Source of the DNA: Trichobilharzia regenti
Lineage: Eukaryota; Platyhelminthes; Trematoda; Strigeidida; Schistosomatidae
Direction: 5' to 3'
Length of the DNA: 64,000 bases
Assembly: GCA_944472135.2 (NCBI GenBank)
Contig: OX235266.1
Coordinates: 14,673,925 to 14,737,924, forward strand
The position numbers and the translations under genes are program-made. The notes beneath the pieces are model-generated. The model worked only from the letters and a program-made list of their open reading frames with translations, was not told the DNA's origin and did not search any database. Shown in pieces: positions 370 through 61,824 of this stretch. Positions within the stretch are counted from its first letter, which is position 1. Every line of letters starts with the position of its first letter.

Positions 370-710
370 TTTTTTGTGGGCTGCTGCCAATTAGATGGTT
401 GGAGGCAATTGGCAAGAAGTCTTGAAAACCACCTAGGTTTCATGCTAGTCGGTAATCACCAGTCAGCAAGGAATATCTGCAACCTTGAAGGAACTCATGT
501 TGCCTTAGGCAAAGCTTCCTGCTGATTGTCTCGAACAATCTAATACCAAAAATTCTCAGTGAACCGTGCTGGTGAGCTACCCCTAGTGTCATGGGTAGCT
601 ACATTGCAAACTTGACTGATAGAATTCAATCTGTACCTAAGACAGGACTAGACACATAAACACCCACACATTACACTAGTTAGTGACTAGTGTCCAATCA
701 AAAAAATTCA
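370..710. mobile_element. SINE-D composite, inverted halves
   Basis: A dispersed repeat that recurs near 4580, 23460, 48600 and 56220. The left part (to about 485) reads in minus orientation, with a core that reverse-complements the tRNA-derived segment seen at 23800-23883. The right part (from about 500) reads in plus orientation and ends at the family terminus actagtgtccaatc. The two halves meet head to head. No coding capacity was seen. Confidence 0.6.
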
Positions 711-904
711 TTTGTGTTTTTATAAGCTTATCAGTAGAAATGAATTCAACAGACGATTGAAATATCAGTTTCTGGGACTTCTGATGCTTAAAATTTCCTA
801 ATTATTAATAAGAATTCTGTTTCAAACACATTACAATATGACTACTCTTCACGAAGAATAATATAAATACATTGGCTGTTAGTTAACGCATTCTTTAAAT
901 ACAA

Positions 905-1403
905 ATATATCCTTGATGAATTACACACTGTTATACAGTAATATTAACTGATACGACCACGTTTCTAGCACAAATTATTGCTCATAATCCTATCAAGTCA
1001 CTCTAAAGCCAACGCATTCTAATATTGGATATTTAGACTTTATTTAATTCATCTCATCCGTTGTCTGTCTATAAAGACTGACTTAGTAAAGTGTCTGCAA
1101 AACCGAGCAATAGCACCAAGTAGTACAACAAAAAATCGAAATGATGAAATGAAACATATAGAGGGAGAAGCGTTGGTGTTAAATAACTAACTATCCTATA
1201 AAATTCATTAGGAAGATCAAAAAACGGTCGAAAGAAAAATAAAAATTAATGATGAAACTAATAATGAAAACATAATTAAGAGAGAATATAAAGCATCTAA
1301 AATGGTATTACCATGTAAGGAGGGAGAGGAAAACTGAAACCCTGTTTAGGATTCTTAATACAGCAAAAATTAGGGTGGCATTTAAACCTACAAACTCACT
1401 CAG
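905..1403 (+). mobile_element. Penelope-like element P1, 5' part with inverted terminal arm
   Basis: The first half of a short Penelope-like element, later split by a LINE. Positions 910-1001 are an inverted repeat of 3205-3302. Just before the split the translation gives TETLFRILNTAKIRVAF and FKPTNSL, the linker that leads into the GIY-YIG domain. The frame resumes after the LINE at 2580 with RDKLCRLKNP. The reverse transcriptase core is absent. A sister copy with the same layout is at 9148-10410. Confidence 0.7.
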
Positions 1404-2565
1404 TGGTGTCCGATAGGGATGTCCACTCTCCCCATTTCTGTTTAACTTCATCATAGATATGCTGATGGAAGTATCCGTAACTGAACGTAACGACTTAGGA
1501 ATCGACTTGTTACCAGGGAATAGTCTTATGGACTTAGAATATGCAGATGACATAGTCCTGTTAGGGGAGGATGCTGACAAAATCCAACAGAGTCTTCTGA
1601 ACACCTTGAGCAGTAATCTTCGTATGTCTGGCAATGCGATTCGCCCCTGCAAAATGTGAGATGCTGCTGCAGGACTGGACTACGTCAACTCCTAGCTTAG
1701 TGATAGGGAGTGAAGTGATAGAACATGTTGACCACTTCACCTATTTGGGAAGTTGTACCAGCATCAACGGACTGATTATTGGCGACGAAATCTCAGCACG
1801 AATCCAAAACCCTCGAGCTGCTTTCGTTGACTTACAACATCTCTTGCGTAGGCGTGACATCCGGATATCAACCAAGGGACGTGTGTACTGCTCACCAGTT
1901 CTCTCCGTCCTTCTCTATGGCTCTGAAACATGGCCAATACGAGTTGAAGACATGAATAGGTTGACTGTTGTTTTTGATCATAGATGTCTGCGATCTCTGT
2001 CTCACGTTAGGTGGTATAACAAGCTAGTAAGTAATCTTGACGTTAGGCGTAGAGTGTTGGGCAGGCAAAGAGGGAAAACCGATCAACGAGGCTATAAAGT
2101 TACATAGACTGAGATGGCTAGGTCACGTGTTGCGCATGCCTAACCATCGCCTCCCCCGACGGGCATTACTAGCTGATATAGGTGCAGGTTGGAAAAGAGT
2201 AAGTCGTGGCCAAACAAACAATAACATGGCGTCAATCCATGAAATCCTTGACAGTTAAACTGAGTCAGGTAGGGAGATGCAGACTTCCGGGTTGGGGCCC
2301 TCGGGACTCTAAGAATCAATGGCTGCAGACAATAGGTGACATGGCTCAAAATCGTTGTCAATGGCTAGCGCAGATATAGTATACAGTCTCTGTAATCTTT
2401 CATATTCCTTTCCACCATTACCCATTCTGTTTCACTCTTGTACTTGTCAAATTCTATTGATTCTCTTCACTCATCTTCTTGTCTACCTTTGTGTGCTACT
2501 TGGAAGGTGGCAATTCGTAGTGCTGCACTTCGGTGCCAAGTTCTATGTTGAATCCAGAGAGACAG
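1404..2565 (+). mobile_element. LINE-A, 5'-truncated, inserted in Penelope-like P1
   Basis: A non-LTR retrotransposon fragment. It starts inside the reverse transcriptase at GVR.GCPLSPFLFNF, runs through the EYADDIVLLGEDAD box (YADD catalytic aspartates), then the LLYGSETW and [12 protein letters not shown] motifs of the C-terminal region, and ends near gttgaatccagagagacag. The 14-bp sequence acaaactcactcag occurs immediately before (1390-1403) and after (2566-2579) and is the target-site duplication. The frame carries several shifts and one stop, so the copy is inactive. It closely resembles the copy at 59275-60473. Confidence 0.88.
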
Positions 2566-3365
2566 ACAAACTCACTCAGGGATAAGCTCTGTAGATTAAA
2601 GAACCCGGCGGACCCAATTAAATAGAATAATATAATTTACTGAATACCTTGCAATGACTGAGAGTTAGGTGAACAAAATAGGTCAAACTAGTAGGTTAGG
2701 GGTAGTCAGACTGTCGGAACATAAGAATTTAGCTAAGGTTGAGTGGTTGACACCAATAATTTAAAAAAAACAGCTCACCAATTGTACTGCATGAATTCAC
2801 ACACAATACTGTGGATAAGACAGAGTCAAAATTCTAAGGGGTAATATAGGTAGGTGGAGATAGAGAGAGATTGATTACTGAATCCTGGATCGTCGAATCT
2901 ACATTCAGCATATGCAATAGAAGTGACTCAACGCAAATACCAGAGATATGGAAAATATTATCACTAATCAAGTAAAGGGGATGACAAATAACATTCATAT
3001 GTATTCAATTCACATACACTATGACACTCCAACAAGTTACGTATCTTGACTATAAAAACATTTTGTTTGCCATCTGATTGTATTTTATTGATAACACTCA
3101 TATTATTATTTCTGAATGGGCTTTATTTTAAATTGATTTTATTTAAATTTCTAATCATCAATTCCACTCATATAAATAAATGAAGCAAGAAAGTTGTGTG
3201 AGTAGTGCCTTGATATGATGAATATGAGCAGAAATAATTTGTTCTTGAAACATGACTTTCATTAAATATTACTGTATAACAACACTATATGATTTCATCA
3301 AAATAAAGTTTTATCCATAATGGAGTTATACTCCACCACAGTGGCTAAGTTTTATACTTATAACA
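2566..3365 (+). mobile_element. Penelope-like element P1, 3' part (GIY-YIG relic)
   Basis: Continues P1 after the LINE insertion. The translation in pieces gives IPCNDCE, IGQTSR, RLSEHKNLAK and RERLITESW, the pattern of a Penelope GIY-YIG endonuclease (an aromatic-IGQ..R core followed by an EH). Positions 3205-3302 form the inverted partner of 910-1001. Homology with the second copy (P2) extends to about 3365. It has stops and frameshifts. Confidence 0.72.
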
Positions 3366-11961: not shown

Positions 11962-12435
11962 CAAGTGTTGCTTTGTAGGGATTTGATTGGTTTCAGGATT
12001 TCATCATGAGCTGACATTAGTTAGAGAACCATTGGAAAACAAACTGGGAGTACTGGACAGCTGTTTCGTCCTAGTTTGGGACTCTTCATCAGTACGCACC
12101 CACCGCCATCGTTCGAACCCAGGACCTTCCGGTTACAAGGCGACCTCGTATACCATTAAGCCACTGGGACCCGATCCAATGGCCAGTCCATGAATTCTAA
12201 CTTTTGCCAATTTTCGACATAGCGCGACCACTAGCCAATGTCTTCGGTGGCGAGTATTTGTCCTCACAACCGACCAGCTGCACCCTACTGGTCACGACTT
12301 CCCACTGGAACCCAGGTAACTACCTATCTGAATAGGGCCAGTCGCCAGTGAGCATCTCATTGGTATTCAAGTGTTGCTTTGTAGGGATTTGATTGGTTTC
12401 AGGATTTCATGATGAGTTGACATTAGTTAGAGAAC
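11962..12435 (-). mobile_element. SINE-A, 406-bp unit with terminal redundancy
   Basis: The best-kept SINE-A. The 10-bp sequence caaacacgtt stands on both sides (11952-11961 and 12436-12445) as a target duplication inside the Penelope-like P3. The first 68 bp (from ttcaagtgttgctttgtagg) are repeated 406 bp further on, at 12366, so the insertion is one full unit plus a partial second. On the minus strand it has A box tggcttaatgg and B box ggttcgaacg, followed at about 12050-12100 by a hammerhead-like segment: stem I gtactg/cagtac, gaagag, stem II gtcc/ggac, gaaa, stem III cagctg, cleavage-type gtc. The core starts atgaagag where ctgaagag would be expected, so activity is doubtful. Confidence 0.85.
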
Positions 12436-17964: not shown

Positions 17965-18800
17965 TCGTCTCCTGTCTAATTAATCATGCGAGATGATATT
18001 CAGAAATACGATGATGAACCTGCCTAATTGTAAACCAAATGTAGCTGGCTTCAAAGACGCAGTCAAACTGGTAGCTACACATGGAAGAGGAGGTGAAGTC
18101 AGATAGTTTGTCCCGATTTATCGAACGTAAAACAGGGGTGGTAATTATGAGACAACGTACCGCTGCTGCAATGAAATCCCTTGTAACCGTATTCTTCAGG
18201 CGCTGTGTTACTCTATCGCTGGTGTTATCGCAGAGGAAGTTTTGTGAACAGGGGTATTTTGGAGTTGTTCCCCTTCTGGTTTGTTCTGGTGCTAAATTCA
18301 TATTTTTCTCAATGAAATTGTCTGGATGTCTATTTTTACCAAGTAATTCTCTGATAATCTTAAGCTCCTCATTGAGGCAGTCGTTTGAGCAGATTATCCT
18401 AGCTCTATGAATCACACACTTTCCAAGTTACGTTTATATTTCAAAGGTGCAAACTTCAGAGGGCAAGTCTACTGATCTGTTGTGGTAGGTTTCCTATACA
18501 CACTACTTCTTAATGTGCCATCCCCTTGCCTGATCAGCAATGTGTCTAGGAATGAGATACTATCATTGCTTTCTTTCTCGATTGAATTCGCATCATTGAA
18601 GCCACTGAGGATATTCGTTGCTTCGTCCTCATTTTTCATAATCACAAATTTATCATCTATATATCGATGGTAGAATTCCAATTCATTAATTACTCCTTTC
18701 AATGATCCATTCTCTATCTTAGCGAGGAAAACAATCAGCTAGGACTGGACCTAGCGGGAACCCTATAACAACATCACCAGTTTATCTGTAGCATTCCTTA
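17965..18800 (-). mobile_element. Penelope-like element, RT C-terminus and GIY-YIG
   Basis: From 18780 down on the minus strand: GDVVIGFPLGPVLAD (a PLGPVLA block), then HRYIDDKFVIM with the catalytic YxDD box, ISFLDTLLIRQGDGTLRSSV, YRKPTT, then after a break CSNDCLNEELKIIRELLGKN and a GIY-YIG remnant SYIWFTIRQVHHRISEY. This order (RT palm, thumb, GIY-YIG) is diagnostic of Penelope-like elements. The G of YIG is lost and two frameshifts are present. Confidence 0.82.
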
Positions 18801-27390: not shown

Positions 27391-27657
27391 GAGTACTGGT
27401 GACTACAAAATGACAAAGTTAAACTGTAGCATCTCCCCTTTCCCAAGAATAACCTCAAACAGCCAACTAGAATGAAGGAACCTAGAGTGCACAGCTATCC
27501 TAACCAACCATTTCTGTGGCACTAGCAATCCTTCATGATCCACCTAATGTTCAATAAATACACAATGATAAATAAAATATTACAGAATTTTCCTATAAAT
27601 GAATGGAGATTAGTAGTCATATGTCTTATTTTTCCCTCACATCTTATTCTACTACAG

Positions 27658-28215: not shown

Positions 28216-28755
28216 TTGGATAGAAGATCATTGGGAAACCCGGGAGTACTGGACAGCTGTTTTCGTAGTCCTATTCTGGGACTCTTGATCAGTACGCACC
28301 CACACCACAGGGGGTTCGAACCCAGGGCCTTCTGGTTACAAGGTGAGTTCGTATATCACTAAGCCACTCAGACCCGATTCAACGCCCCATGAATTCTAAC
28401 TTCTGCCAATTCACGACATAGCGCGACCACTAGCCAATGTTTTCGACGAATATTTGTCCTCACACCCGACCTGCTGCACCCTACTGGTCACGACTTCTCA
28501 TTAGAACCCCAGGTAACTACCTACCTGAATAGGGGAAGTCGTCAGTGGATTAAGTCCCAGTGGCTTGATGGTTTACGAGCTCACCTTGTAACCTGAAGGT
28601 CCTGGGTTCACAACCTTGCGATGGGTACGTACTGATGAAGAGTCCCAAACTAGGACGAAACAGCCGTCTAATACTCCCAAGTTACTTTCCAATGGTTCTC
28701 TAACCGATATCAGGTCATGATGAAATCTTGTAAAGAATCAATCGAATCCCTACAA
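28216..28755. mobile_element. SINE-A composite, head to head, inside RTE
   Basis: Minus copy 28216-28535, nearly a whole unit, with a ribozyme-like segment (gagtactggacagctgtttt reversed), B box and 5' body. Plus copy 28540-28755 starts just before the A box (gtcccagtggcttgatggtt), has tactgatgaagagtcccaaa and ggacgaaacagccgtc, and ends ccctacaaaccaacac. Both 3' ends are outward. Confidence 0.8.
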
Positions 28756-33849: not shown

Positions 33850-35540
33850 GAGACATTCAAATGACATCAAGTGTCAAACCCGTTAATGGAACACGAATTG
33901 GAAGCCGCAGTTTTAGCGTGTCTTCAGCAGCACATCTTCATTCTAGGGAAAAGAACAAGTTCAGCAGAAATATCTTTTCGGTGATTTCATTCTTAAAAGA
34001 AATACAAACTATAAAAAATATCATCGACGTTTGTCAGGATGATTCCGATTTAAATTGTATCTTACAAGAGTTTAATAACTGCCATCCTTCAATTAAATTC
34101 ACAATAGAATTTGAAAAAGTTGAAAATTCTATTCCTGGATGTCGAATTGACAAGAAGAGATGACGGAACTCTGAAAAGATCTATCCATAGAAAACCAACA
34201 TGGAATGGCCAACTGACAAACTTCTACAGTTGGATACCTATTAGCCTTAAACGAACTCTCATCACCTCGCTATCCCACTGTACCAGAGGAATTTGCAGCG
34301 GTGACTGTTTAGAAGAAGAGCTCCTATTTCTTAAAAGCATCCTGGTTCAGAATGGATACCCACCGCGTTTCGTGGCGAAGAACATGAAACCAAGGCCAAA
34401 AAGAGAAGAATACGCTTCAGTGCAGAAGAAGGCACTCTATTTGAATTTGGAATTCAGGGGAGACTTAGCATCAGATATCCTTAAAAGGAGAATCTCCAAT
34501 TCGCTGAAGAAGACATTTCCGGCAGCAACTCTAAGAGTCATATTCTCTAGCCGCCAACTACTTCGGACCAACGGGAAGGACAGACTTCTGCATATAACCA
34601 CTTCAATGCGCATATATCAGTTCACCTACTCTTGCGGAGTTAGGTTCATAGGTCGTTCTATGCGGGTCTTATCAAAACGTGTTGGAGAACGTCATCCAGC
34701 ATGGCTGCAAAGAGGAGGCACTGGTTCAGTCGAAAGTGCCATAAGTGGACACCTCGTCAATACCTATCACAGAATCTTGACTGACTCATTCATCATTCAG
34801 TGTCATTTACAAAATAAACAAAAATCTACCAAAGACAGTGTGTTTTCGACTTCTTTGTACTGTGGAAGCTCTCGCCATATGCATCGAAAAGCCGTAGCTA
34901 TGTGTTCAAAAGAAACCAGTCCAACCTTTACAACTACCATGGACCTAGTTCGGTATGTTTCCTTATCCTTGAGCTTTTTTGTTTTGTTCTCTGTGTGTGT
35001 AATTTCCTCTCTTTGTCTTCATTCAATTCATCCCATTTTTTCAGTTATAAAATCAGTTATTTTAAGTTTGTTTCCATGCTCCACCTGACCACACTTGTAA
35101 TCCATTTAGGATAACCACCTTATAATTATATTCTAATCCTGTGTAATTTTTTTGTTTCTGTGCCTCTTGTAACCTATTTTTCACACCTCCTAACTTACAT
35201 TCCAAGTTGAAAATTTGGACTTTAGTTTGTGTCGTTGCTCATTTTGTTCACACCTGTAATTCATTTTATCCCTGCGTAACTTTTGTTTCTAGGTCTCTTG
35301 TAATTTAGATCAAGCTGAAAATAATTATCACCTTTTATTCGCCTTTAAAATTATTATTTCTGCAGTTATCAAATATTAATTTTGCATGCGTTGTAATTGT
35401 TTTTTAATCCTACGCAATCTTGCCTCTAAGTTCCTTGTAATCTATATTTGTACCTTCAAACTTTCATATCAAGTTGAAAATTATTATCAGCTTCGTTACT
35501 ATGTGGAATTAAACAAATAATAATAATTGTATCCATATAA
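33850..35540 (+). mobile_element. Penelope-like element, best-preserved copy
   Basis: Two frames joined by one shift near 34128 encode the RT end and thumb (IKFTIEFEKVENSIP, then FLDVELTRRDDGTLKRSI, HRKPTWNGQLTNFYSW), a thumb block (EEELLFLKSILVQNGYPP, RFVAKNM) and an intact GIY-YIG endonuclease: IYQFTYSCGVRFIGRSMRVL, SKRVGERHPAW, SAISGHLVNTYHRIL. The FIG core and following arginines are present. A T-rich, non-coding 3' region follows to about 35540. The 325-codon open frame is the longest in the window and is not a host gene. The RT catalytic YxDD lies upstream and is missing (5' truncation). Confidence 0.85.
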
Positions 35541-36726: not shown

Positions 36727-37192
36727 AGTTGCCCATTTGGTACTTATTTACACGTCATCAATTTACATCATCGAGGTGGATCAAGTGTCTATCCACAATC
36801 GACAGTTAATCTTCACATGAAGAAAAAAGGCATAAATGAATCGACAGAAACAACCACAACAACACCCACAACAACAAAAACAACTGACTTACTATTCACA
36901 CATTTTCCATGGAGTCAAACTGATGCAGGCCTATTTCATAAATTCTCAACAAAAATTATTGAAGAATTAGCTAATTGGTTAGTTAACCATACACAACCCA
37001 AGTTATACGGGTTAGCACAAATCTGTCTCCCGTGTAATGAACAATGTTATAAAGAGATGAGTATATCAATGAGAAAATCAATTCATCAAATAGGATTATC
37101 ATCTGTAGCGTGTTATGGACCTAGTCCAGAACAATGTGTACGTTGTGCAAATGCAAATTATCAAGGTCGTTGTGTTTCAGCCTGTCCAATCG
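36727..37192 (+). CDS. EGFR: EGFR-like receptor, exon g (CR2, with Thr-rich spacer)
   Basis: 466 nt, acceptor ctttttttttttatag, donor gtaaga, starting on a whole codon and ending after position 1. It encodes SCPFGTYLHVINLHHRGG, a spacer with the run ETTTTTPTTTKTT, then LFTHFPWSQTD, then GLAQICLPCNEQCYKEMS, VACYGPSPEQCVRCANANY, QGRCVSACPI. The tail 'ACYGP.P.QC..CANA.Y.G.CV.ACP.G' matches the family's 'C.G.GPDNC..CA....G..CV..CP.G'. The Thr-rich stretch is a likely O-glycosylation region (inference). Phase 1 exit joins exon h to rebuild Gly. Confidence 0.95.
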
Positions 37193-51795: not shown

Positions 51796-52521
51796 TCGTC
51801 AGGAAATATTTTACACTTCTAATTCAACTCGTCTTCAATATTAACCAGCCAATAAAGATAGTTTGTTACTGTGACACAGATCTTTATTCACATTATTAAG
51901 ACCATATTTCTTCCATTTTGTTTTTTCGTCTACTTCAGAATGAAACTTATTAGTTTTAGGTGAAATGACGTTCAATCAATATTTCTAGGGGTTATAAGAT
52001 CCTCCTTTCCTTAGTTTAGACTATAATTGAGTACATGAATGAAGACAAGTATCCTGGTAAAACCCCAATTCAGAATTTTGTATTTCTTGGGGATTTTAAC
52101 TAATTTCAGTATGTATTTCACCATGAAATGACATCGTTTAGGGAATCACAGAAATTCAAGGCGTACCAAACAATTTTTAATCTCTACATTGGAATTCTTC
52201 ATCAGTGACTACCAAGCAAGACGAATTGGATGTTAATCCGCGCTAGCGGTTGGAACAACCTCTAAAGTTGAAATTCATTGAATTTACGGTTCTTTGGGTA
52301 ACTGAATTCCAACTCAGGATTTGAATTTTTGTGGGTTCTATCGCTAATGGGATCACGGGTGCCCATCACTGAAGAGTCGCAAATCGGGACGAAGCTTCTG
52401 TTCAATGGTCGTGATAGAATCTATATGATATCACTTCATTTGATTTCTTTTTCTTTTCGTTTTGTTAATTGATTTGCCCAAATCTTTTCATAATAATGTC
52501 TGTCTATTTGAATAATTACAG
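51796..52521. other. Intron; decayed SINE-A at 52080-52420
   Basis: Traces of a head-to-head SINE-A: caccatgaaatgacatcgtt on the left, then tcactgaagagtcgcaaatc with gggacgaagcttctg on the right. The 100 bp before the exon are T-rich and serve as its branch/acceptor region. Confidence 0.45.
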
Positions 52522-52944
52522 CCTATGCTGCTTTCCAATACCCTAAAGCCAAATATGGCCACATTACGTATAATTACTGAGTCGGAATTGATTCGTGGTC
52601 CATCCATTGGTTCTGGTGCATTTGGTACGGTCTACTGTGGTGTCTGGTGTCCAAAATTGAGCAAATCGAAAATTGATACATTGAATGATGCATGTAGTAC
52701 AGTGACGACAGCGACAACAGCGAATGGAGCCTCACCGTCAACACCATCAGCAGCTACAGCAGCAGGGACTCCCTGTTTATCAACATCATTCAGTTATGAT
52801 GTTAATAAACAAACAAACGATATGGAATCACTTTCAACTTCAACGGATGAGAATTATTTTAATCTGCATATACCAGTGGCTATTAAAGTACTGTCTGATT
52901 CAGCTGATCCACAAACGAATAAAGAATTATTAGAGGAAGCAAAG
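52522..52944 (+). CDS. EGFR: EGFR-like receptor, exon j (kinase N-lobe with insertion)
   Basis: 423 nt (141 codons), acceptor aataattacag, donor gtaatt, whole codons. It starts PMLLSNTLKPNMATLRIITE, the segment that precedes the kinase ('P....NQA.LRI..E.E'), then the glycine loop GSGAFGTVYCGVW (residues 30-42), the ATP-binding lysine in IPVAIKVL (Lys122) and the helix-C glutamate in NKELLEEAK (Glu139). Between CGVW and IPVAIK lie about 74 residues, rich in Ser, Thr and Ala (STVTTATTANGASPS), where human EGFR has about 8. The catalytic residues are intact. The insert should loop out between strands beta2 and beta3. Confidence 0.96.
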
Positions 52945-53061
52945 GTAATTTCTTTTAGAGGACTCCTTTTTTCATAATAAACTTCACGTGCACTGTAGCA
53001 CCCTTCATTAGTAGCTTAAATGATTAGTCATCAGTTTCAAGAGATATTCTTACTCGTTAGC

Positions 53062-55025: not shown

Positions 55026-55038
55026 TAAGTGTTGTGGA
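55026..55038. repeat. Target-site duplication, left
   Basis: taagtgttgtgga, repeated exactly at 55539-55551. In the LINE this sequence is present once, so the 500 bp between are an insertion. Confidence 0.9.
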
Positions 55039-55058
55039 CAATTGGTGGATGGTGGCTA

Positions 55059-55119
55059 GCAGTGGAATCCAGGATGCGCATTTCGTCCTATTTGGGACTC
55101 GTCAGCTGGATGTACCTGC
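55059..55119 (-). ncRNA. Hammerhead ribozyme (Sm-alpha type), minus strand
   Basis: 61 nt, the exact reverse complement of the plus copy. Read on the minus strand: stem I gcaggtacatcc.agc, core ctgacga, stem II gtcc/ggac closed by caaata, core gaaa, stem III tgc/gca, cleavage site atc, stem I return ctggattccactgc with its tertiary-contact bulge. This is the well-studied schistosome full-length hammerhead, with all conserved core positions present. It is transcribed antisense to the receptor gene and can be driven by the tRNA-like promoter in the same unit. Confidence 0.93.
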
Positions 55120-55339
55120 ATTTCTCAGTGAGTGATGATGTTCCCACCGAGGCTCGAACCCAGTACCCATAGTTTCAAACGCCAAAGCGTTATCCACTAG
55201 ACCACTTGGGCCACGAGAGCCACCTCTTGTGCGACGGGTCATATTAATTATTGAATTGAATTTTTGATTTTCCCATCGATCGATTGGACCGAAGTGCTCG
55301 GTCTCAGGTTGACCGGAACATCATCACTCACTGAGAAAT

Positions 55340-55400
55340 GCAGGTACATCCAGCTGACGAGTCCCAAATAGGACGAAATGCGCATCCTGGATTCCACTGC
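55340..55400 (+). ncRNA. Hammerhead ribozyme (Sm-alpha type), plus strand
   Basis: 61 nt identical to the minus copy when reversed. Core elements: ctgacga, gaaa, and cleavage after atc; stem II gtcc/ggac; stem III tgc/gca; stem I/loop contact arms gcaggtacatcc and ggattccactgc. It lies sense to the receptor gene, inside the intron between exons j and k, so the pre-mRNA carries both a cleaving ribozyme and its inverted partner, which can pair over 107 bp and may mask it. Confidence 0.93.
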
Positions 55401-55538
55401 TAGCCACCATCCACCAATTGTATACTAACTAAATACCCAGACATCGTCGAAGCATCTGCACAAGAAGCCGACATGTCAACCTGAGACCGAGCACTTCGGT
55501 CCAATCGATCGATGGGAAAATCAAAAAATTCAATTCAA

Positions 55539-55551
55539 TAAGTGTTGTGGA
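55539..55551. repeat. Target-site duplication, right
   Basis: taagtgttgtgga, identical to 55026-55038. Confidence 0.9.
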
Positions 55552-56165
55552 TTTCATTGACTGGTGCCATGTTTTGGTTTGACCGCCGCTGGCTAACTCT
55601 TTTCCAGCCTGACCCTATATCAGCTAACATTGCCCGTTAGTCGAGGAAGGCGATGACTAAGCATACCTAACACATGTAAATTCACAGACTTGTCAATTGA
55701 TTTCCCCTCCTTATAGCACTCGACGGCTAACCTCAATATTGCTCACCTTATTATACCTCTTCACACGGGAGATAGAACGCAGGCACCTATGATCAAAGGC
55801 AGCTAATCTTTTCATGTCTTCCACTCTCAGTGGCCAGGTCTCACAACTAGCCATAAAGGAGGACTGAGCGGACTGCTGTAGTGCAGTACGCATGTCCTTT
55901 GGTCGATACCCAGATATCACGTCTACTAAGCCAGAGACGGCGTAAACTGGCATATGCGAAACTAGGCTCCTGTATCCGTGTTGGAATTTCTTCAGCGATC
56001 AACCCACCGGCGTTGGCTGATGGTAATTCCCGATTAAGTAAAGCGATCAACGTGCTCTACCACTTCACTTCTTATTTCTAATCTAGGAGTCAATGTAGTC
56101 CAGTCCTGTAACATCATCTTGCATTTGGCGGGAGCGGATTGCTGCATGCCAAACATTCGTGGATT
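55552..56165 (-). mobile_element. LINE-A, upstream part (split by Sm-alpha composite)
   Basis: Minus strand: DEISARIQ-type segment (AEEIPTRIQEPSFAYASLRR), CETWPLRVEDMKRLAAFDHR, CLRSISRVKRYNKVSNIEV, SRRVL, then ggcaatgttagctgatatag (reversed). Its frame has several breaks. It continues into 54700-55025. Confidence 0.85.
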
Positions 56166-57060: not shown

Positions 57061-57318
57061 GTAATGGCAACTGTTGATCATCCATGCTGTGTCCGATTTC
57101 TAGCCTTATGTTTAACATCTAAACTACAATTGATTACACAATTTTTACCAATGGGTAGTCTGTTAGAATTTGTTAAAACACGCTGGGATACAATTGAAGT
57201 TAGTTCATTATTTCAATGGTCAGAACAAATTGCCTCTGGTATGGCATATTTATCAAGTCGTGGTATAATACATCGTGATCTAGCTGCAAGGAATGTATTG
57301 GTTCAGTCAAAAGATCAA
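57061..57318 (+). CDS. EGFR: EGFR-like receptor, exon k (kinase hinge and catalytic loop)
   Basis: 258 nt (86 codons), acceptor ttttgtttattag, donor gtaagt, whole codons. It encodes VMATVDHPCCVRFLALCLTS, then KLQLITQFLPMGSLLEFV, SSLFQWSEQIASGMAYLSSR, GIIHRDLAARNVLVQSKDQ. The gatekeeper Thr (residue 26, in LITQ) and hinge, the helix-E region W.EQIA.GM.YL, and the tyrosine-kinase catalytic loop HRDLAARN (71-78; catalytic Asp73, Arg76, Asn78) are all present. Match to EGFR 'V.RLLGICLTS..QLITQLMP.G.LL..V' is close. An intact, active-type loop. Confidence 0.97.
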
Positions 57319-57369
57319 GTAAGTGCAGCTGGTTGGTGAAATTATTATTATTATTTTTCAAGTGTTATT

Positions 57370-61615: not shown

Positions 61616-61824
61616 TATAAACATTGACGTAAATTACTGTCCACCAATTTTGACTAACAACCAGCTCTCACCACAATAGTAATAAAAGTAATATAACAGG
61701 TTTCAACTAAAAAAGCGACAAATGATTGCAGTCATATAAAAACCTCTTATCCCATGATTTTATTTATTTCAAGTAATGCATATAACTATTATTTTCTTTT
61801 CCTGTCAAATTCTCCTTCCTACAG

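What the first reader, a model, noticed from the sequence alone, without database searches (positions are those of the whole stretch)
55026..55551. Twin hammerhead ribozymes on a perfect 107-bp inverted repeat, one clean 500-bp insertion
The insertion sits inside a LINE, has an exact 13-bp target duplication (taagtgttgtgga), and carries two complete schistosome-type hammerheads in opposite orientation (55059-55119 minus, 55340-55400 plus). All core residues are intact. The arms 55038-55144 and 55315-55421 are perfect, so both units were made together and recently. The plus ribozyme is sense to the receptor pre-mRNA, and its inverted partner can pair with it. Hence the intron may self-cleave or be held in a long hairpin.
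Basis: partly seen in the sequence, partly recalled or inferred. Interest (0 to 1): 0.88.

Follow-up and report, generated by a model that had tools for sequence, protein, structure and literature searches.

The report
Head-to-head hammerhead retrozyme insertion
A small ribozyme RNA, probably a circle, seems to have been copied into a fluke's genome from both cut DNA ends at once, leaving a mirror-image insertion; a sample of its relatives and of a Penelope-type jumping gene carries the same mark, which bears on how such ribozyme elements move.

Summary
In detail: a 500-bp insertion with an exact 13-bp duplication and two opposed, complete type I hammerheads on a perfect 107-bp inverted repeat. 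It is not a special twin ribozyme but one copy of a 329-nt hammerhead retrozyme; its ribozyme pattern has 11,294 matches in this genome. The arms are permuted stretches of the monomer joined 5'-to-5', sense 3' ends outward.

Of 66 independent sampled loci, 52 are two-armed; 51 of these have one outer end at monomer site A (~27-49) and one at site B (~147-163), with scattered inner joints. TSDs are most often 13 nt, at a palindromic AAC|A...T|GTT target. A Penelope-like element (PLE) has the same paired ends in 12 of 12 two-armed copies examined, TSDs of 8-14 nt and an AAC preference.

Best reading: a PLE enzyme cuts both strands and primes cDNA from each, at two fixed sites on circular (or multimeric) retrozyme RNA. 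PLEs were already suspected as movers (PMC7229834); this adds integration evidence. Intron cleavage is weakly supported: the predicted hairpin buries the ribozyme.

The parts
55026..55038 (.). left target site duplication taagtgttgtgga
   Evidence: empty site in 40 of 40 scored repeat copies
55539..55551 (.). right target site duplication; its first 3 nt (taa) also match the monomer after site B
55039..55313 (-). A arm: cDNA starting at monomer site A (~m34) and running through the ribozyme cleavage site to m89
55315..55538 (+). B arm: from m258 through the ribozyme cleavage site to site B (~m151)
   Evidence: one extra A against the left arm
55313..55315 (.). 5'-to-5' joint of the two arms (1 nt between them); a 29-nt pattern across it occurs once in the genome at up to 3 mismatches
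55059..55119 (-). type I hammerhead of the A arm (Rfam 55067-55111)
55340..55400 (+). type I hammerhead of the B arm (Rfam 55348-55392); cleavage expected at 55386/55387 (position of cleavage in the motif recalled)
55145..55247 (-). stretch present in the A arm only; sense strand has tRNA-like promoter words (GGTTCGAGCC and an A-box-like word), named from memory
   Evidence: by eye; not tested
55714..56135 (-). LINE-like reading frame pieces in the host repeat
52516..52977 (+). EGFR-like gene, start of kinase region (Pfam PK_Tyr_Ser-Thr E 1.3e-4, below its cut-off)
57061..57336 (+). reading frame with HRDLAARN, next kinase piece, downstream of the insertion
   Evidence: by motif

Best explanation
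The 500 bp is one copy of a non-autonomous hammerhead retrozyme (329-nt monomer) inserted by two-strand target-primed reverse transcription, most likely by a Penelope-like element (PLE) enzyme. The enzyme cuts both strands about 13 nt apart, leaving 3' overhangs. Each overhang primes one cDNA on retrozyme RNA, one starting at site A and the other at site B. Both cDNAs can run across the ribozyme cleavage site, so the template is continuous there: a circle, or less likely an uncleaved multimer. Some run more than one turn and leave perfect tandem arrays. The two cDNA ends are joined, giving a head-to-head insertion between copies of the filled-in overhang. Shown: architecture, A+B rule, TSDs, target symmetry, crossing of the cleavage site, the same paired ends in a PLE of this genome. 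Inferred: that the PLE protein acts in trans, that the template is a circle, that the enzyme is a dimer, and the order of steps.
For: 52 of 66 independent loci two-armed, each minus then plus, 51 of 52 with one A and one B end; 20 of 20 further loci chosen for similarity to the insert also A+B. 37 targets show the same half-site on both strands; AAC in 20 of 74 half-sites against 1.6% in distal flanks (P 2e-19). 50 of 52 A arms cross the ribozyme cleavage site; 18 of 102 arms exceed one turn; L010 has 9 of 9 compared units identical in an arm of about 3.2 kb. Arms of one insertion share non-consensus variants 0.0087 per nt against a re-paired mean of 0.0026, maximum 0.0055 in 200. PLE: 12 of 12 two-armed copies with one tailed and one untailed end, AAC in 4 of 22 half-sites (P 3.5e-4). 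Anolis PLE protein cuts and extends both strands from two internal sites (PMC11167929).
Against: No sequence similarity joins the PLE tail to the retrozyme A-B region (238 of 500 shuffles score as high). No hammerhead was found inside PLE copies in the 11 loci searched. In the Anolis assay start sites did not differ between strands in bulk. 13 of 66 loci are one-armed and one is A+A. The window's own target has GAC and AAA half-sites, not AAC. Only 38 of 68 loci gave a TSD of 10 nt or more by script. Discordance between arms (492 of 8,624 nt) and between turns in some loci (L078, 29 of 106) is read as age, not proved. PLE AAC enrichment rests on 22 half-sites.
Confidence: 0.75

Rival explanations
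1. The same two-strand priming, but by an enzyme other than the PLE family examined (another PLE family or a different retrotransposon).
For: No sequence link between the examined PLE tail and the retrozyme; a second PLE group was seen but its ends were not worked out.
Against: Same head-to-head paired ends, TSD length range and AAC preference in the examined PLE.
Confidence: 0.12
2. LINE-type twin priming: a LINE enzyme inserts retrozyme RNA and inverts the 5' part in some events.
For: Inverted 5' part, TSD and short overlaps at the joint (32 of 51 joints overlap by at least 1 nt, 3 flush, 16 with 1-17 extra nt; alignment edges blur this).
Against: Both outer ends are fixed and paired A+B, and two-armed copies are the majority; the target has the same half-site on both strands. 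That LINE inversions are a minority with one variable start is recalled.
Confidence: 0.05
3. Self-priming: a cDNA or antisense strand folds back and copies itself, as proposed for head-to-head rotifer PLEs (PMC3846280).
For: Explains head-to-head arms in print (passages).
Against: Inner coordinates of the arms should coincide; 2 of 51 lie within 10 nt (3.3 expected if uniform) and 5 of 51 within 20 (6.4 expected). It gives no reason for one A and one B end.
Confidence: 0.04
4. The 500-bp composite itself moves as a unit (fold-back element).
For: More than 20 other places match nearly the whole insert.
Against: The exact joint is unique at up to 3 mismatches and inner joints differ between loci; only L063/L064 and L038/L074 share joints within 2 nt besides two segmental duplicates.
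Confidence: 0.02
5. The plus ribozyme acts on the EGFR-like pre-mRNA, by cleavage or as a hairpin.
For: Sense orientation in the intron, intact ribozyme match, long hairpin.
Against: Its structure is fully explained by integration; the fold buries the ribozyme. No expression data.
Confidence: 0.04

Closest known systems
Animal non-LTR retrozymes with type I hammerheads (PMC7229834: part 1 of 6 and passages), including the schistosome SMalpha kind (named in passages of PMC8490949; sequence not compared)
   Same: Type I hammerhead, ~170-400-nt unit, tandem repeats, TSDs longer than 4 bp, proposed circular intermediate
   Different: The passages seen do not describe head-to-head copies, two fixed outer ends or a symmetric target; they name LINEs or PLEs as movers, PLEs as strong candidate, without integration evidence in what I read
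Head-to-head Penelope copies in Adineta vaga (PMC3846280, passages)
   Same: Inverted arms, optional tail on one arm, TSD of 8-10 bp
   Different: Autonomous elements; explained there by antisense self-priming, which the retrozyme joints do not fit
Anolis PLE protein in vitro (PMC11167929, parts 1-2 of 4)
   Same: Both strands cut and extended; two internal start sites that bound the tail; AT-rich target
   Different: In the parts read: no joined two-arm products, linear RNA templates, no per-event pairing of the two sites; no strand difference in bulk
Circle-to-multimer model for retrozymes (PMC7761336, passages and Figure 2 legend)
   Same: Circular RNA reverse-transcribed into multimeric copies
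   Different: No two-strand priming in the passages seen

Membership tests
animal non-LTR retrozyme | type I hammerhead | tested here: met
   RF00163 on both arms, 69.1 bits
animal non-LTR retrozyme | unit of about 170-400 nt found in tandem | tested here: met
   329-nt monomer; perfect arrays such as L010. The window copy itself has one ribozyme per arm
animal non-LTR retrozyme | no coding capacity | tested here: met
   no frame of 130 aa or more overlaps the 500-bp insertion
animal non-LTR retrozyme | TSD longer than 4 bp | tested here: met
   13 bp here; 10-15 bp in 38 of 68 loci by script
animal non-LTR retrozyme | expressed as circular RNA | not testable with these tools
   no RNA data; only continuity across the cleavage site is seen
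Penelope-like element (window insertion as a member) | encodes reverse transcriptase and endonuclease | tested here: not met
   non-coding; it is inserted like a PLE but is not one
Penelope-like element (partner family, L103) | reverse transcriptase domain | tested here: met
   RVT_1 30.8 bits, cut-off 29.6, E 3e-7
Penelope-like element (partner family, L103) | GIY-YIG endonuclease | tested here: inconclusive
   Pfam GIY-YIG not reported at E up to 1; a YIGQT motif seen by eye and recalled; 2 of 120 listed relatives carry PF01541
Penelope-like element (partner family, L103) | tandem or head-to-head copies, tail on one arm | tested here: met
   18 opposite-strand pairs within 8 kb in the listing, all minus then plus (counted by eye); 12 of 12 chosen pairs with one tail
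LINE twin-primed insertion | one fixed 3' end, other start variable, minority of copies (recalled) | tested here: not met
   both ends fixed; 52 of 66 two-armed

The most novel reading that the evidence does not exclude
PLE-type integration is an obligatorily paired reaction: the two halves of one enzyme dimer each take one target strand and one of two start sites on the same RNA, and on retrozyme circles they run as rolling-circle reverse transcriptases. This one mechanism makes the head-to-head copies, the PLE tail and long perfect satellite arrays, and only multi-turn arms with two ribozymes in tandem (5 of 118 arms, in 4 of 67 loci) can seed new circles.
Probability: 0.5. Interest if true: 0.86.

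Novelty: new variant of a known kind. Interest (0 to 1): 0.74.

Why it matters
How animal hammerhead retrozymes move has been open; PLEs were named as strong candidates without integration evidence in the text I read (PMC7229834). The paired A+B ends, the symmetric target and the shared PLE architecture supply such evidence, and they offer a different explanation of head-to-head PLE copies from the published self-priming one. They also link ribozyme RNA, probably circles, to the birth of satellite arrays. All of this is directly testable with the published in vitro PLE assay.

Tried and rejected
Self-priming was rejected on inner coordinates. LINE twin priming was rejected on the fixed paired ends. 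A composite moving as a unit was considered because more than 20 other places match nearly the whole insert, and rejected because inner joints differ and the window joint is unique. A sequence link between the PLE tail and the retrozyme A-B region was sought and not found. Pfam GIY-YIG as bait found one place, with 150 of 1,801 candidates scored. The solved-structure search gave no useful match. Searches for a prior description of paired ends: in an open-licence library only; Cervera 2014 is not held and was not read. A species search settled nothing.

Sampling and rows dropped. The listing shows exact matches only, so the sample leans to young copies with an intact ribozyme, and loci with two ribozymes are listed more easily; weighting by ribozyme number gives 76% two-armed. 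L036 and L095 were dropped as segmental duplicates from the 66, but were still and, with the 19 similarity-chosen loci. L095 was left out of the target logo. L059 (three segments) is its own class and was left out of the arm counts. L010 was skipped by the script. PLE copies for the end test were chosen because they are two-armed, so 12 of 12 speaks to the tail rule, not to how common two-armed PLEs are; one-direction PLE arrays also occur. L111 was not scored: its left arm ends inside the element. My note says 19 PLE pairs; a recount gives 18.

Full report
What is there. The insertion at 55039-55538 is flanked by an exact 13-nt duplication and carries two type I hammerheads in opposite orientation on a perfect 107-nt inverted repeat; a second perfect inverted pair of 53 nt has a different centre. 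Laid end to end, the unique parts give one 329-nt monomer, numbered here from the expected ribozyme cleavage site (its place in the motif is recalled). In the sense direction the left arm (minus strand) reads monomer 89 through 329/1 to 34-35, and the right arm (plus strand) reads 258 through 329/1 to 151-154. The arms are joined by their 5' sides, and both sense 3' ends face the flanks. Over the shared positions they differ by one A in an A-run.

Surroundings. 40 of 40 scored copies of the host repeat cross the joined flanks without an insert. The repeat is LINE-like by eye; Pfam gave no family for the window ORF used as its relative. The gene is EGFR-like: growth-factor-receptor domain IV at 27603 and furin-like at 36727 over their cut-offs, a kinase match at 52516 below its cut-off, and frames with HRDLAARN at 57061 and DFGLA at 61786 seen by motif. 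The insertion lies in the intron between the 52516 and 57061 frames.

The family. The 37-nt ribozyme pattern has 11,294 matches at up to 3 mismatches; the backwards control has 0. These are places, not loci. I took 68 loci in coordinate order from 0.5 to 22.7 Mb of C1 (8, 60). Mapping gives 51 two-armed, 16 one-armed and 1 complex. Three one-armed loci (L030, L054, L093) hold a B piece of about 10-18 nt inside their TSD, by eye. Two loci are segmental duplicates. Net: 66 loci, 52 two-armed, 13 one-armed, 1 complex; 76% two-armed when weighted by ribozyme number. The two-armed loci all run minus then plus. 51 of 52 have one A end and one B end; L034 has A+A. A further 20 loci chosen for similarity to the insert are 20 of 20 A+B.

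Target. The script found TSDs of 10-15 nt in 38 of 68 loci; 14 of these have 13 nt. With one duplicate removed and all turned so that the B arm is on the right, 37 targets show A, A, C before the TSD (27, 26 and 16 of 37), A at its start (24), T at its end (20) and G, T, T after it (18, 22 and 30): the same half-site on both strands. AAC is in 20 of 74 half-sites against 1.6% in distal flanks. The window's own target departs from this (GAC and AAA half-sites). The simplest reading is one enzyme cutting both strands with the same preference, leaving 3' overhangs that become primers and, once filled, the duplication.

Template. 50 of 52 A arms in the two-armed set run through the ribozyme cleavage site; a cleaved linear monomer would offer site A about 50 nt at most. 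Inner ends are scattered, 3 of 102 within 4 nt of the cleavage site, and 18 of 102 arms exceed one turn. L010 has an A arm of about 3.2 kb in which 9 of 9 compared units are identical to each other and to the window monomer. Arms of one insertion share non-consensus variants at 75 in 8,624 nt (0.0087 per nt; 55 loci) against 0.0026 when re-paired, maximum 0.0055 in 200; discordance is 0.057 against 0.076. This fits one RNA or sister RNAs. Turn-to-turn differences are few in young multi-turn loci (L081, 1 of 305 and 0 of 317) and many in others (L078, 29 of 106), which I read as age. A circle fits best; an uncleaved multimer is not excluded.

The machine. A typed PLE-like query finds 43,269 first-look candidates, of which 150 were scored, with frames up to 926 aa open; among the listed places I count by eye 18 opposite-strand pairs within 8 kb, all minus then plus. 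In 12 two-armed copies with both ends examined (L102, L112 and ten pairs of end pieces) 12 of 12 have one end with a tail of about 40 nt and one without. The script finds a TSD of 8-14 nt in 11 of 12; in L113/L114 a 14-nt repeat is seen by eye in the printed ends. AAC is in 4 of 22 half-sites of 11 of these copies (P 3.5e-4). Over residues 270-824 the best database relative of the PLE protein is a Trichobilharzia szidati protein, 89% identical, so the genome is probably from Trichobilharzia or a close relative; this is inference. No hammerhead lies inside PLE copies in the 11 loci searched, and no similarity joins the PLE tail to the retrozyme.

Fit with print. The Anolis PLE protein cuts and extends both strands and starts at two internal sites bounding the tail; in bulk it showed no strand difference in start site (PMC11167929, parts 1-2 of 4). 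Per-event pairing of the two sites is compatible with that but is not shown by it. Rotifer PLE copies are head-to-head with an optional tail on one arm and were explained by antisense self-priming (PMC3846280, passages). That explanation predicts matching inner coordinates, which are not seen: 2 of 51 within 10 nt, 3.3 expected. The animal-retrozyme paper names PLEs a strong candidate (PMC7229834). In the papers and searches listed under Tried and rejected I saw no statement of the one-A-one-B rule; the library holds open-licence papers only.

As a single strand the insertion is predicted to fold into a 107-bp hairpin with the plus ribozyme paired (MFE -304.6 kcal/mol, 0 of 100 shuffles as low). 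The minus arm would be transcribed first, so sequestration is likely (inference); cleavage in the intron is possible but unsupported. Each arm of the window copy has one ribozyme, so it should not release a unit-length RNA; 5 of 118 arms in the sample (4 of 67 loci) have two in tandem.

Noticed in passing
12050-12095 (-) and 28629-28674 (+): A second hammerhead subfamily: the first beside a 72-nt direct repeat spaced 406 nt, the second with inverted arms 28268-28302 / 28622-28656 and 28318-28373 / 28554-28609, probably an older head-to-head copy. L100 782-1202 holds one of this subfamily with a 16-nt repeat at its ends, by eye.
   Followed up: partly
34108-35088 (+) and 17984-18427 (-): Reading frames that look like PLE reverse-transcriptase fragments by recalled motif; Pfam gave no family.
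   Followed up: no
L063 and L064 (C1, about 23 kb apart); L038 and L074: Pairs of insertions with the same inner joint within 2 nt; L063/L064 match each other within the insert but not in the flanks shown. About 0.3 such pairs expected by my estimate. Unexplained.
   Followed up: partly
G000:C3:87068046-87081611: PLE array in which three minus-strand RT matches are followed by three plus-strand ones, period about 2,701 nt: a large head-to-head multi-turn structure.
   Followed up: no
L103, protein 682-3153 (-): PLE protein with an asparagine-rich run between the RT and the presumed endonuclease, like the N-rich inserts described for rotifer PLEs (PMC3846280).
   Followed up: no
L111 1062-1139 (-): Rfam mir-3492 match at 53.4 bits, over its cut-off of 44, beside a PLE copy; probably repeat-derived.
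   Followed up: no
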